Origin: Arachidicoccus terrestris
GTDB lineage: Bacteria; Bacteroidota; Bacteroidia; Chitinophagales; Chitinophagaceae
DNA length: 64,000 nt
Direction of reading: 5' to 3'
NCBI RefSeq assembly: GCF_020042345.1
Contig: NZ_CP083387.1
Span: 2,418,001-2,482,000 of the forward strand
Shown: positions 4,857-37,265 of the stretch, one piece after another
Layout of the letters: each line of letters starts with the position of its first letter
Numbering within the stretch: position 1 is the stretch's first letter
Notes under the pieces: model-generated
Seen by the model: only the letters and a program-made list of their open reading frames with translations
Told to the model about the DNA's origin: nothing
Database searches by the model: none
Translations under genes and position numbers: made by a program

Positions 4857-7800
4857 ATGAAAAAATCGACACAAGTTGTTCTAAGGGCTGTATATCTTTT
4901 TATTGCAGGCCTTCTCCTTTGGGGCAACGCCTTTGCCCAAACCCAGGAAGTTTCCGGGGTGGTCAAATCTAGTGAAGGGGCGCCTCTTGCAGGGGTGGTC
5001 GTTGCCGTTAAAGATGGTCAGCAAAAGGTGCTGTCGCAGGATAACGGATCCTTCCATATTAAGGCAACCAATGGTGATGTCTTAACATTTTCCTATATCG
5101 GCTTCGCAGATGCTGAGCAAACGGTAACGGGGCCAACAATGGAAGTTACCATGACAGCAAATGAAGCGGCCTCAGCAGGCAGTGATGTAGTAGTGACGGC
5201 ATTGGGTATTAAAAGAGAAAGTAAATCTCTTGGATATGGCGTGCAGGAAATTAAAGGCGCCGAGTTGGCGGATCGTCATGAACCCAACGTGACTAATACC
5301 CTCTCTGGAAAGGTTGCCGGGTTACAAGTGATCAAGTCCAGTAACGGGCCGGCGGGATCTACCAAGATTGTATTAAGAGGATACAATTCTCTTACCGGAG
5401 ATAACCAACCGCTGATCGTTGTGGATGGTATTCCAATTGATAACTATGCCGGTGTTCCACGTGGTGGAACCAACGATTTCTGGAATCCGTCTCTGGATAT
5501 GGGTAATGGTCTCTCTGACATCAATGCTGATGATATTGCCAGTGTGAGCGTGCTCAAGGGGCCGGCTGCAGCTGCGCTATATGGTTCCCGGGCTGGTAAC
5601 GGTGTTATACTGATAACAACCAAGACGGGAAAAAAGCAGAACGGCCTTGGCATCACCGTTTCGTCCAATTTTGGAATGGAAAACGTGTTTACCCAGCCTG
5701 ATATGCAAAGTACCTATGGCCAGGGAGAAAACGGCGTTTATGACAAAACGTCGGGCTCCAGCTGGGGACCGGAGATAAAAGGTCAATCGTATGAAAAGTG
5801 GGATGGTACAACGGGGGCAATGCAGGCTTATGATAACGTGAAGAGTTTCTTTAACACAGGGTTTAATAATAGCACAAATGTTTCCTTCTCCCAGTTGTAT
5901 AATAAAACTTCTATATACACCTCTTTTAACAGGTTATATGACAAGAGTATGTTGCCAGGCTCTAAATATGAGCGGACTAACTTGACTTCCAGAGCGGTCA
6001 GCAAGTTTGGCAAAGATGACCGCTGGACCCTGGATACCAAAGTTCAGTATAGCAAGTCAACTGCCAGTAACCGTCCCAGCGGTGGCGTCAATGCCGGTAA
6101 TGCGTTCGCTGTGATGTATCAGCTGCCGCGCAGTCTGGATATCCGGGATTTCTCAGCAGCTACTGACCCTTATGGTAATATGATCTGGTATGAGCCGGCA
6201 TCCTCCGCGGTTAACCCTTATTGGGGGGCATTGTACAATCTGAACAGCGATACGAGAGACCGTTTTTTACTGAACGGGTCTTTAAAATACCAGTTTAATG
6301 ACTGGCTGAACGCAGAGATTAAAGGTGGTGCAGACATATACAATACCGCGACCGAAGCAAAAGCATATGCCGGAGGTCCGATCACTAACCAATATAGCCA
6401 GGGCAAAAATTCTTTTACAGAAACAAACTATAGCTTTCTGGTCAATGCCCAGAAAGATAACATCTTTGGTAAATTCGGGGGATTGGTAAATGTTGGCGGT
6501 AACCTGATGGACCGTACGGTCTCTTCTTTGAGCTCGGGATCGGGAGAGTTGGTCGTGCCCGACTTGTTCTTATTGAACAATGGTAAAAACAGCCCGACCG
6601 TAAGTCAGTCTTACAGCCATCAGAAAATTAATTCTCTTTACGGAACGATACAGGTGAACTATGACGGTTACATCTTCCTGGATGGAACTTTCAGAAATGA
6701 CTGGTCCTCTACCCTCAGCAAGGACAACAGGTCATATTTTTATCCATCTCTTAGCTTATCCTATGTCTTTACAGATATGATACGCAAGACAGGAGGTTCT
6801 GTTCCTTCCTGGTTTACCTATGGCAAATTGCGCGCTTCCGTTGCTGAAGTGGGTAATAGCCTTCAGCCATATCAGTTATATAATACTTATAGCATCGGAA
6901 AGGACCCTAATGGTAATACAACAGCCAGTACAGGAAGCACATTCTATAATTCAGATGTACGCAGTGAGTTAATTAAGTCTACAGAAATCGGTACGGAGCT
7001 CAGGTTTCTTCAAAGCAGGATAGGACTGGATGTTTCTTGGTACAAAACGAACGCTACCAGGCAGCTGTTGGCTATTCCGCAGGATGCACTAAGTGGCTAT
7101 TCCAGCAAAATGATCAATGCAGGAAATATTCAGAACGAGGGTATTGAAGTAATATTAAATACCAGTATCTTGAACAAGCCAGAATCACTGAACTGGAATA
7201 TGACAGTGAATTTCTCCAAGAACAATAATAAAATTATTTCTCTGACTGAAGGAAACCCTTCTTATGGTCTAGGCGGTTATGATGCCCTTTCTATTGTGGC
7301 TGAAACCGGCAAGAATTATGGAGAAATTTATGGAACAGCCTTTCAGCGTGTAGAAGATCCAAATAGTAAATATTATGGTGAATTACTTTTAGATGGAACC
7401 GGTTTGCCAAAGGGTACCTCCGACAAACGCGATCTTGGCAATCAGCAAGCAGACTATCTGTTGGGTATCACCAATCAGTTTTCTTTCGGGGGATTTAACT
7501 TGTCTTTCTTGGTAGATGGCCGTTTTGGCGGAAAAATCTTTTCTGCAACCTATGCTGCAATGGAAGCGGCGGGCACTGCCGGGATTACCGGCAGCCGAGG
7601 CAAAATGGTGGTTGATGGGGTTGTAGAAGATGGCAAAGGCGGATATACAAAAAATACGGCAGAAATTACGACAGAGCAATATTGGACAGCTATCCAAAGC
7701 GGCAATATCGGCATTGTCGAGGCCAATCTGTATGATGCAACCAATATCAGGCTTCGTAATGTACAGCTGAGTTATAACCTCCCTCATAGATGGTTGGAAA

Positions 7801-34639: not shown

Positions 34640-34891
34640 TTTGCTGTACTATCTGGCTTGATTACCTTTGCATCTGTATTGGCCGTGCCATATTCATTGC
34701 AGCAGCCCTCTACAGCATTCATTCGCTTTCAAGTGTCTACCCGTGTGGAATAGGTTAATTTTGCCCCGTCATCGGAAAAGCACTGATAGAGACGATGACG
34801 AACCTACTTCGTTGATTTGACCTGACTGTACATCTGCCGCTTTGCCATAAGCAGTAAGAACAGCCATCAATCCAAATATTATTGAAATCAT
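34640..34891 (-). pseudogene. Possible decayed gene for a small secreted protein
   Basis: From ATG 34891 the minus strand reads MISIIFGLMAVLTAYGKA, a plausible signal peptide, and stays open for 40 codons to a stop at 34769. Shifting by one base, the frame continues with protein-like sequence (SDDGAKLTYSTRVDT), meets a stop, then reads MNAVEGCCNEYGTANTDAKV and ends KPDSTAK. This looks like a short exported protein broken by a frameshift and a nonsense change, next to the TnpB insertion. I recognise no family, and chance cannot be excluded. Confidence 0.28.
34641..34670 (+). promoter_or_regulatory. Full promoter match reading towards the TnpB gene
   Basis: TTG (34641-34643) and TACCTTTG (34663-34670) are separated by exactly 19 bases, the Bacteroidota consensus. 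The next plus-strand gene is tnpB, about 280 bases downstream, so the transcript would have a long leader. It may instead be an orphan promoter outside the element. Confidence 0.5.
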
Positions 34892-34954
34892 GCCCTGGTC
34901 GTATAAGACCACATTAAAGGGGTACAGGCATTCTATTGTAAAAAAAATTAAATT

Positions 34955-36163
34955 GTGAAAAGCACGCACCTGAAAGCTTATAAATTTCGGATCTACCCCG
35001 AAGGGGAGCAGATTAATTTTCTGGCCCGGCAATTTGGCTGTTGTCGGTTCGTGTACAATTATGCCCTTGAACTGCGGCAAAAGACCTATGAAGAGACCGG
35101 CAAATCCCTGTCTTACTATGACACCACCAAAATGCTGCCTGTCCTTAAAAGCCGGCAGGAAACCGGGTGGCTGGGCGAGGTGATCGCCCAGCCACTGCAG
35201 ATGGCCATGCAAAATGTAGAGGATAGCTATAAGCGTTTCTTTAAGGGACAGAACAGGTACCCCAGATTCAGGTGCAGGAGCGACCGTCAGTGCTTTAAGC
35301 TGCCACAGGGCTTCAGGGTGGAGGGTGACCTTCTCTGGCTCCCTAAACTGAAAACAGGGATCAGAATAAAAATAAGCAGGCAGATCAAAGGGAAAATATT
35401 ATACCTGCATCTGTCCAGGACTACTACAGGCAACTATTATGTTTCCTTTACCTGTGAGGTCCCCAGGGAGATACTGGCCGGTACGGGTAAGGATACCGGT
35501 GTCGATGTAGGGGTCAAGGATGCCGCCATCCTGTCGGATGGCACCAGATATGAAAACATCAAACCGCTGAAGAAACTGGAGAAGAAACTAAAACACAGAC
35601 AAAAGCAACTCTCCAAAAAGCAGAAAGGCAGCCAATCCAGGAAACGGCAACGCCGTATAGTAGCCCGGCTGCATGAAAGGATAAAGAACCTCAGGGAGGA
35701 CCACCTGCATAAGATCACTACCGACATCGTCAAGAATCACGACACCGTCGCGGTAGAGGACATTGCGGTGAAAAACATGTTGAAAAACCACTGTCTGGCA
35801 AAATCCCTGTCAGACGCTTCACTGGGAAAGCTACTGACCCAGCTAGCGTACAAATGCGACTGGTATGGCCGGAAGTTCGTGAAAGTTGACCGGTTCTTCC
35901 CCTCTTCCAAAACCTGTCATGTCTGCGGGGAAAAGAAAGAAGACCTGACTCTGGCAGACAGGGCCTGGACCTGCAGCTGCTGCCATACCACGCATGACAG
36001 AGATGTCAATGCCGCCCGGAACATACTCAGGGAAGGTCTGAAAATATTGTCTGGCTGTGGTGCGCAGTCGGACACTAAACAAAAACAGGCGGAGGCGTCC
36101 CCACTGGGGGAGTCTGTGAAGCCTGAAGCAAAGGCTAAGCAAAAGGAGAAACCTGATGCATAG
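34955..36163 (+). CDS. tnpB: TnpB, RNA-guided endonuclease of IS200/IS605 elements
   Basis: The 402-aa protein has an N-terminal wedge/REC region (KAYKFRIYPEGEQINFL, RFVYNYAL, YPRFRCR). A split RuvC nuclease follows with D184 (GVDVGVKDA), E268 (VAVEDIAVKNM) and D350 (HDRDVNAARNI). A zinc ribbon formed by C321/C324 and C340/C343 lies before the last motif. All catalytic residues of active TnpB proteins are present. The start is a GTG at 34955, as no ATG lies near the conserved N-terminus. The C-terminal 40 residues are charged and low in complexity, consistent with DNA that also encodes the guide-RNA scaffold. Confidence 0.95.
   Translation: MKSTHLKAYKFRIYPEGEQINFLARQFGCCRFVYNYALELRQKTYEETGKSLSYYDTTKMLPVLKSRQETGWLGEVIAQPLQMAMQNVEDSYKRFFKGQNRYPRFRCRSDRQCFKLPQGFRVEGDLLWLPKLKTGIRIKISRQIKGKILYLHLSRTTTGNYYVSFTCEVPREILAGTGKDTGVDVGVKDAAILSDGTRYENIKPLKKLEKKLKHRQKQLSKKQKGSQSRKRQRRIVARLHERIKNLREDHLHKITTDIVKNHDTVAVEDIAVKNMLKNHCLAKSLSDASLGKLLTQLAYKCDWYGRKFVKVDRFFPSSKTCHVCGEKKEDLTLADRAWTCSCCHTTHDRDVNAARNILREGLKILSGCGAQSDTKQKQAEASPLGESVKPEAKAKQKEKPDA
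36098..36111 (+). ncRNA. Hairpin in the presumed omega/re-RNA scaffold at the tnpB 3' end
   Basis: TCCCC (36098-36102) pairs with GGGGA (36107-36111) over a four-base loop inside the last codons of tnpB. In characterised elements the guide RNA overlaps the tnpB 3' end and carries GC hairpins before the variable guide. Only this local structure is visible, so the true RNA limits (perhaps about 36040 to 36200) are unknown. Confidence 0.4.
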
Positions 36164-36273
36164 CTGAGTAGCAACAAGGGAATCAGATGGTGAAGTGCAA
36201 CTATTAGATTGTTCTTTCTGAGGGAGGAGATATTGTTTGCCGGAATAAAGATTGTTAACTGAAAACTGATAAA

Positions 36274-37265
36274 ATGAAAAAATACACGATAGACAGGACG
36301 TGTTCGGACCTTGCCAGACAGGCCTGTGAAACAAAGCCCGTACCAGCAGATAAAAGCGGTGTGAATGAGGGTAACGCAAGTATTCGGGAAGAAGAAGCGG
36401 GTGTTTTTGTAAACCCGCTCAGTGATGCGGGGTTCAAAATTCTTTTTGAAAAAAGTGGCGTTTCGGAAAATGCCACAGGGCTAAAGGAAGGGGAACTGTT
36501 ACGTGATATGCTGAATGCATTTTTTGATGAACGGATAGCCCCAATTAATAAAGTGCGGTACAAGAACACGGAATTATTTGGAGAAACAATTAATCAGAGA
36601 AAAACAGTTTTTGATATATATTTTGTAGATGGAACAGAGCGTAACTTCGTGATTGAAATGCAGGATGAGAGAGACGAGTTTATGGTAAACAGGGCTCGTA
36701 ATTATATATGCCGAGCCCATTCAAATGCACTGGAAAAGGGAAAGAAGTTCGAGCATCGTCAGGCACCCGTAATTGGCGTTGTAATTGCCAACTTTTACAT
36801 GCATCAACAAAAAGAAATGCCCTGTATATCTGTTATTGAAAGCGCCGAATTGAAAGCCAGCCTGGTGGCTATCGAACTGACGAAGCTCGTAACGATTGAG
36901 TTGCCGAAGTTTAACAAGAGAATTGAGGACCTGAAAGATAAAAAGGATGTATATTTGTTCCTGTTAAAGAACATGGGGAAGCTTAAGGAAGTTCCCCCGC
37001 AATTTGATAACGACGATTACAGGCCATATTTGAGATTGCGAGAATTGCCAATTTAAACCCGAAAGATAAAATGATGTACGACAAAGAAAGAATATACGCG
37101 ACCAAATGGCAGCATGTTGTTGAGACTGCCGTAAATGACAGTAAAAGAGCAATTGTTGAAAGCTTTTTGAAAGAAAACTGCTTGACAATAGCACAGATCG
37201 CTAAAGGCTGCGGATTGGAAATAGAAGAGGTAGAAGCAATAAATGATACCCTAAAAAATGCATAA
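36274..37265 (+). pseudogene. Rpn/PD-(D/E)XK recombination-promoting nuclease, frameshifted
   Basis: The first part (36274-37056, 260 codons) starts with an unusual 43-residue leader, then the Rpn block FVNPLSDAGFKILFEKSG. It has the nuclease residues D114 (KTVFDIYF) and E128/Q130 (FVIEMQ), and ends abruptly at LRELPI. The conserved continuation (IFEIARIANLNPKDKMMYDKER, about 37026-37091, then a C-terminal helix-turn-helix-like tail to 37265) lies in the -1 frame. Joining at about 37025 restores a typical Rpn protein, so one base has probably been lost. The nuclease part itself may still be made. Rpn proteins are PDDEXK nucleases that raise RecA-independent recombination. It starts 110 bases behind tnpB. 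Confidence 0.85.

What the first reader, a model, noticed from the sequence alone, without database searches (positions are those of the whole stretch)
34896..36200. Complete, transposase-less TnpB unit that may be an active RNA-guided nuclease
TnpB keeps the full RuvC triad (D184, E268, D350) and all four zinc-ribbon cysteines, while no tnpA is nearby. A small hairpin sits at 34896-34911, and a GC hairpin lies inside the tnpB 3' end (36098-36111), where guide-RNA scaffolds of this group lie. An intact catalytic core with no transposase partner suggests selection for nuclease function, domestication or recent arrival.
Basis: partly seen in the sequence, partly recalled or inferred. Interest (0 to 1): 0.55.

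Follow-up and report, generated by a model that had tools for sequence, protein, structure and literature searches.

The report
TnpB nuclease riding an IS66-type transposon
The gene is a damaged copy of a family of jumping DNA in which an RNA-guided DNA cutter, normally found with a different kind of mobile element, travels between the ends of an unrelated transposon, with tiny copies that carry only the guide-RNA part.

Summary
The TnpB gene is real and intact: RuvC triad D184/E268/D350, four zinc-ribbon cysteines, and a predicted three-stem guide-RNA scaffold at its 3' end with covariation. But the unit is not complete.

The family is also not IS200/IS605-like. Its ends are 12-bp terminal inverted repeats (GTAACTGCTCAG) with 8-bp target duplications (exact in 6 of 13 right-end-bearing copies, 7/8 in one). 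These match IS66/ISBst12-group ends: the same 12-mer in ISDge4, and in an IS66 element of a congener. In a second congener a related TnpB lies between such ends together with a (broken) IS66 transposase. The window's genome has neither a Y1 nor an IS66 transposase. Four short, TSD-flanked derivatives (139-386 bp) keep only a left TIR and the guide-RNA end. Sister TnpBs sit behind IS91-type genes, so this lineage seems to have changed vehicles within one genus.

Copies evolved under purifying selection (dN/dS 0.14-0.23). Cleavage, guide processing and homing are inferred, not shown.

The parts
34755..36175 (+). Left-truncated copy of the IS66-type TnpB transposon (full copies elsewhere in the genome are 1577-1590 bp)
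   Evidence: similarity to four other copies begins at 34755 and ends at the right-end repeat
34755..34755 (.). Breakpoint: about 158 bp incl. the left terminal inverted repeat GTAACTGCTCAG are missing left of here
   Evidence: left-end probe finds 4 places in the genome, not this one
34896..34911 (+). Small leader hairpin TGGTC-GTATAA-GACCA, internal to the element, of no demonstrated role
34955..36163 (+). tnpB, 402 aa, RuvC D184/E268/D350 and zinc-ribbon cysteines (321, 324, 340, 343) intact
36049..36073 (+). Guide-RNA scaffold stem 1 (GTCTGGCTGTG...CGCAGTCGGAC)
36086..36125 (+).
36133..36165 (+). Guide-RNA scaffold stem 3, 3' arm touching the right terminal repeat
36164..36175 (-). Right terminal inverted repeat CTGAGTAGCAAC (other copies CTGAGCAGTAAC; IS66/ISBst12 type), changed at two positions in this copy
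36176..36195 (+). Predicted guide AAGGGAATCAGATGGTGAAG (inference: the first 8 nt would be the target duplication)
   Evidence: position inferred from the element end

Best explanation
The window holds a left-truncated copy of a small transposon family whose only gene is an ISDra2-like TnpB nuclease and whose ends are those of an IS66-family (ISBst12-group) DDE transposon. SHOWN by sequence: 12-bp terminal inverted repeats, 8-bp target duplications, a guide-RNA-like scaffold ending at the right terminal repeat, purifying selection on TnpB, miniature derivatives, and in a congener a related TnpB between IS66 ends with an IS66 transposase gene. INFERRED: an IS66 transposase acting in cis (ancestor) or in trans (non-autonomous copies) moved the element; TnpB is loaded with a guide RNA whose scaffold is the tnpB 3' end and whose guide is the duplicated target plus right flank; it cuts the uninterrupted target site when the sequence left of the duplication fits a target-adjacent motif (predicted T-[C/T]-[A/T]-A), and repair from a filled copy restores the element. 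The window copy can no longer move as a unit but could still make TnpB and guide RNA. The confidence given is for the anatomy and vehicle; for the homing step alone it is about 0.45.
For: Four full copies with TIRs; exact 8-bp duplications in L011, L013, L014, L015, L016, L018 and 7/8 in L010, found beside the TIR, against nulls in which 1-3 of 600 random 8-mers did as well, some of which may be the true site itself. The same 12-mer TIR bounds a 2362-bp IS66 element in congener G004 (PF03050 9.4e-35), and a second IS66 in G002 has a perfect TIR of that type and a duplication; ISDge4, an ISBst12-group IS66 caught transposing, has a TIR GTAACTGCTCAGCA and an 8-bp repeat (PMC12898284 passages). 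Composite in G002: ACATGGAG-GTAACT...IS66 tnp-HTH-tnpB-scaffold...CTGAGTAGTAAC-ACATGGAG, left end 280 bp past the transposase stop against 274 bp in G004. TnpBs of G000 and this composite form one clade, 100/96. Scaffold covariation: 8 of 24 pairs with changes on both sides vs 3.3 in shuffles, 0 of 500. dN/dS 0.14-0.23. Left-flank motif TYW|A in 7 of 8 sites, 0 of 8 on the right.
Against: No IS66 transposase is left in this genome (0 matches), so the mover is inferred from relatives. Only one composite with transposase was found and its transposase is frameshifted; its two TIRs match only with one gap, and its 8-bp repeat alone would be found by chance in several percent of such scans (my estimate). 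L012 has only a 5/8 duplication, not above its null (119 of 600), and 5 of 13 right-end copies (L009, L017, L020, L021, L022) show no left end. The motif was read off the same 8 sites that support it, and of three IS66 sites without TnpB one has its +1 A. Nothing here shows RNA, cleavage or homing.
Confidence: 0.78

Rival explanations
1. Ordinary TnpB-only member of IS200/IS605 (IS1341-type) that lost TnpA.
For: Protein domains and NCBIfam/PDB relatives are IS200/IS605 TnpB; congener G001 has a classic IS605 arrangement with Y1 TnpA (PF01797) next to a TnpB 39-41% identical.
Against: IS200/IS605 and TnpB-only elements lack TIRs and target duplications (PMC3627910 passages); here both are present in several independent copies. 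No Y1 gene in the genome.
Confidence: 0.08
2. An IS605-like TnpB unit nested by chance inside an IS66 miniature element and passively carried, with no working link between guide RNA and IS66 ends.
For: Only one extant IS66+TnpB composite was found; a DDE transposase needs no TnpB (established knowledge).
Against: The scaffold's last stem abuts the right TIR with no IS605 remnant between them, miniature copies keep exactly this end, TnpB is under purifying selection, and the left-side target motif is asymmetric.
Confidence: 0.22
3. Domestication: TnpB and its RNA serve the host (like TldR regulators, but nuclease-active).
For: Purifying selection and an intact ORF in a copy that lacks one end.
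Against: Five scattered similar copies, several decayed ones and four mini-elements look selfish; heavy sequence exchange among copies (551 of 946 informative site pairs incompatible) can keep a stranded copy intact. Conservation of the locus across strains was not tested.
Confidence: 0.08

Closest known systems
ISDge4 and the ISBst12 group of IS66 (PMC12898284, passages read)
   Same: TIR GTAACTGCTCAG identical over 12 bp; 8-bp target duplication; single-ORF IS66 transposase as in G004/G002
   Different: ISDge4 is described with a transposase only; no TnpB or guide RNA is mentioned in the passages seen
ISDra2 TnpB (PDB 8h1j, 8bf8)
   Same: Same nuclease architecture, catalytic residues and size; guide scaffold at the gene's 3' end (recalled for ISDra2)
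   Different: ISDra2 is an IS200/IS605 element with Y1 TnpA and no TIR/TSD (recalled)
Fanzor proteins in eukaryotic TIR transposons (PMC3627910, PMC10711439, passages)
   Same: TnpB relative carried by DDE/TIR transposons with target duplications
   Different: Eukaryotic and viral; here the same vehicle switch appears in bacteria, with IS66 and IS91 types
PATEs and other TnpB-less IS605 derivatives (recalled, no call)
   Same: Short non-autonomous elements keeping the element end with guide-RNA sequence
   Different: Those are moved by Y1 TnpA; these have TIRs and 8-bp duplications

Membership tests
TnpB (RNA-guided nuclease) | OrfB_IS605/TNB domains, RuvC D-E-D, four-Cys zinc ribbon | tested here: met
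TnpB (RNA-guided nuclease) | Guide-RNA scaffold at the 3' end of the gene | tested here: inconclusive
   predicted structure and covariation support it; no RNA data; no Rfam family matches
TnpB (RNA-guided nuclease) | RNA-guided DNA cleavage | not testable with these tools
   needs an experiment
IS200/IS605 | Y1 transposase TnpA | tested here: not met
   PF01797 0 matches in the genome, controls ring in 5 of 14
IS200/IS605 | No TIRs and no target duplication | tested here: not met
   TIRs and 8-bp duplications in sister copies
IS66 (ISBst12 group) | Terminal inverted repeats of the group's sequence | tested here: met
   PMC12898284. The window copy itself keeps only the right one
IS66 (ISBst12 group) | 8-bp target duplication | tested here: met
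   exact in 6 of 13 right-end-bearing copies, 7/8 in one, 5/8 in one, none found in 5, the window copy among these
IS66 (ISBst12 group) | IS66 DDE transposase in the element | tested here: not met
   absent from the G000 elements and genome; present but frameshifted in the G002 composite. So: non-autonomous element with IS66-type ends, not a full member
TldR (nuclease-dead TnpB regulators) | RuvC residues lost (recalled) | tested here: not met
IS607 | Serine recombinase | not tested
   no search was made for it

The most novel reading that the evidence does not exclude
In this bacterial genus one TnpB lineage joined two unrelated transposon types other than IS200/IS605, namely IS66 (DDE, TIR, 8-bp duplication) and IS91-like (Y2 plus tyrosine recombinase), exchanging only the last 12-25 nt of its guide-RNA end for the new transposase's recognition end. 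TnpB then works as a portable homing module for a DDE transposon, with guide = target duplication plus flank, and 139-386-bp guide-RNA-only elements are moved by the transposase and retained by TnpB in trans.
Probability: 0.4. Interest if true: 0.8.

Novelty: new variant of a known kind. Interest (0 to 1): 0.62.

Why it matters
Prokaryotic TnpB is described as tied to IS200/IS605 and IS607, and TnpB-only elements as lacking TIRs and duplications (PMC3627910; PMC12477157, passages). A bacterial TnpB in a DDE transposon would show that the vehicle switch known for eukaryotic Fanzors also happened in bacteria, would make 'what does TnpB do for a transposon that does not need it' testable with an 8-bp duplication built into the guide, and would add guide-only mini-elements to the picture.

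Tried and rejected
IS200/IS605 remnant: rejected for want of Y1 and because of TIR/TSD. An early reading of GTAAC as an IS605-type target motif was dropped when the flanking 8-mers proved to be duplicated. Own-genome IS66 transposase: none. An ungapped TIR/TSD scan of 16 TnpB loci from the family found no convincing case (and missed L132, whose TIRs need one gap); G440 (L174) gave one candidate (AAAGATAT, TIR 10/12), but its sister L179 shares no left end. Among 21 TnpB neighbourhoods only L132 has an IS66 gene. Rfam: no match. Plasmids: 3607 records match, all below 60% identity; viral contigs: 3 loci, 39-41%; GTDB contigs outside the genus: the best full-length relatives reach 48-49%. Empty sites rejoined for 8 copies: no convincing interrupted gene restored; not used. 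A transposase preference as the source of the left-flank motif could not be excluded with only three IS66 sites lacking TnpB. IS66-type elements of G432/G372 have the TIR but no duplication was seen. Promoter/terminator scan: at chance level.

Full report
WHAT IS THERE. The window's tnpB (34955-36163, 402 aa) is intact, with D184, E268, D350 and the zinc ribbon; among solved structures it is closest to a designed RNA-guided nuclease (9yyg) and to TnpB entries 8h1j and 8bf8, which I recall as ISDra2 TnpB. The two hairpins are at the stated places. The genome (G000, one 4.9-Mb contig) has no Y1 transposase at all.

COPIES AND ENDS. A DNA search of the genome gave 15 places: five near full-length copies (the window's own and four at 95-96%) and ten partial ones. 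The four other full copies run on to the left past the window copy's breakpoint at 34755 and start with GTAACTGCTCAG or a variant; right ends are CTGAGCAGTAAC or a variant. A left-end probe finds 4 places, a right-end probe 13. The exact pattern GTWACTGCTCAG occurs in the genome only at the ends of copies L010 and L011.

TARGET DUPLICATIONS. For the 13 right-end-bearing loci I looked upstream for a copy of the 8 bases after the right end followed by a TIR-like string. Exact 8-bp duplications: L011, L013 (full length), L014, L015, L016, L018 (short). L010 has 7/8, L012 5/8. None: L009 (window), L017, L020, L021, L022. In a null that swaps in random 8-mers from the same locus, 1-3 of 600 did as well for the seven good cases and 119 of 600 for L012. 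The short ones are 385, 386, 192 and 139 bp. L014, L015 and L016 start at the same point of tnpB (parent position 1203), joined to a left TIR by a shared ACTG, so they probably descend from one deletion that then spread; L018 is a separate one with GTAACTGCT and the last ~115 bp. These keep the guide-RNA end and no complete nuclease gene.

WHOSE ENDS. A search of the six genomes of the genus with GTNACTGYTYAG found, in G004, three contig-edge copies of one 2362-bp element with 16-bp perfect TIRs coding a 519-aa IS66 transposase (PF03050, 9.4e-35, and DUF6444) and a 166-aa HTH protein; flanks on two contigs share TGATTATT, consistent with one insertion split by the assembly (inference). G002 has another IS66, without TnpB nearby, with TIR GTTACTACTCAGGTGG and duplication AAAATATC, 2377 bp (its frame contains stops). 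A published ISBst12-group IS66, ISDge4, has TIRs GTGACTACTCAGCA/GTAACTGCTCAGCA and an 8-bp repeat at a new insertion (PMC12898284, passages). Paracoccus IS66 elements are also tabulated with 8-bp repeats (PMC3281130, passages).

THE LINK TO TnpB. In G002 a TnpB 63% identical to the window's lies in a 3510-bp unit: ACATGGAG | GTAACTATCAGG - IS66 transposase (58-69% identical to G004's in three pieces, frameshifted) - HTH remnant - tnpB - scaffold - CTGAGTAGTAAC | ACATGGAG. The left end lies 280 bp past the transposase, against 274 bp in G004. The exact 8-mer alone is weak, as several thousand positions and five offsets were scanned; its place and the TIR carry the argument. In 394 genomes of the family, matches to the TnpB were found in 12 and to the IS66 transposase in 12, so both are rare, yet both occur in G002 and G004.

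SECOND VEHICLE. Sister TnpBs (55-61%) in G004 and G002 sit behind a conserved block with a Y2_Tnp/Zn_Tnp_IS91 gene and a phage-integrase-type recombinase; no TIR/TSD was found for them, and their outer ends were not defined. In a tree of 23 rows the IS66-borne TnpBs (G000, G002) form one clade (100/96) and the IS91-associated ones another (96/93), sisters at 100/100. G001, same genus, has the classic Y1 TnpA beside a more distant TnpB.

GUIDE RNA. Region 36020-36177 folds at -57 kcal/mol against -41 +/- 3.8 in shuffles. On 13 sequences (A1) 93.9% of cells pair and 7 pairs change on both sides vs 2.9 shuffled (1 of 500 as high); on 18 sequences (17 distinct, A2, stems 1-2) 94.2% and 8 pairs vs 3.3 (0 of 500); sliding the partner drops pairing to 25-45%. 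Relatedness of rows inflates such tests. I left L022, L050, L051 and L168 out of A2. The third stem abuts the right TIR, so the guide would start with the target duplication (inference).

TARGET MOTIF. At the eight sites with 7/8 or 8/8 duplication (seven in G000 and the G002 composite) the four bases before and the first of the duplication read ATCT|A, CTTT|A, GTTA|A, TTCT|A, ATTA|A, TTCT|A, TATA|A, TTTA|A: TYW|A in 7 of 8, against 0 of 8 on the mirrored right side; +1 A is 8 of 8 against 2 of 8 (Fisher 0.007). The motif is post hoc. Three IS66 sites without TnpB read TTT|A, TAC|T and ATT|G on the same side (my reading). I take this as a hint of a TnpB target-adjacent motif, not proof.

SELECTION. 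dN/dS is 0.14-0.23 in all 10 pairs; one of five copies (L013) has a 1-base deletion. Private changes: 37 synonymous, 27 nonsynonymous. Nine of ten possible two-copy groupings occur among 44 informative sites and 551 of 946 site pairs are incompatible: copies exchange sequence. TnpB cuts repaired from another copy would do this, and so would ordinary gene conversion.

NOVELTY. Searches of open full texts showed no report of TnpB in an IS66 or IS91 element; the one paper with IS66, TnpB and 'RNA-guided endonuclease' together (PMC12375680) was seen only in the listing. Altae-Tran et al. 2023 (recalled) is not held, so a report there cannot be excluded. Passages in PMC3627910 and PMC12477157 state that TnpB-only elements lack TIRs and duplications.

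Noticed in passing
36274-37056 (+): A PD-(D/E)XK nuclease-family 'Rpn/transposase' gene (PF12784) starts about 100 bp right of the element end; no link to the TnpB element was found.
   Followed up: no
L167 2898-6237; L169 1995-5730: TnpB genes behind IS91-type Y2 transposase, Zn_Tnp_IS91 and tyrosine recombinase genes in two congeners; ends not defined.
   Followed up: partly
L174 (G440:C2), around 4895-6199 of the reversed locus: A distant TnpB with a possible 8-bp duplication AAAGATAT and 10/12 TIR; may be chance.
   Followed up: partly
G000 copies L009-L013: Strong mosaicism among the five copies (551 of 946 informative site pairs incompatible).
   Followed up: partly
L006 (G000:C1:1414044): A second, distant TnpB (39% identical) in the same genome, which has no Y1 transposase anywhere.
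   Followed up: no
L210, L211, L212 (G432, G372): IS66 elements with TIR GTAACTACTCA.. but no visible target duplication.
   Followed up: no
L183/L102 (G004:C24): A right-end-only remnant of the IS91-associated TnpB type, so guide-end-only leftovers occur there too.
   Followed up: no
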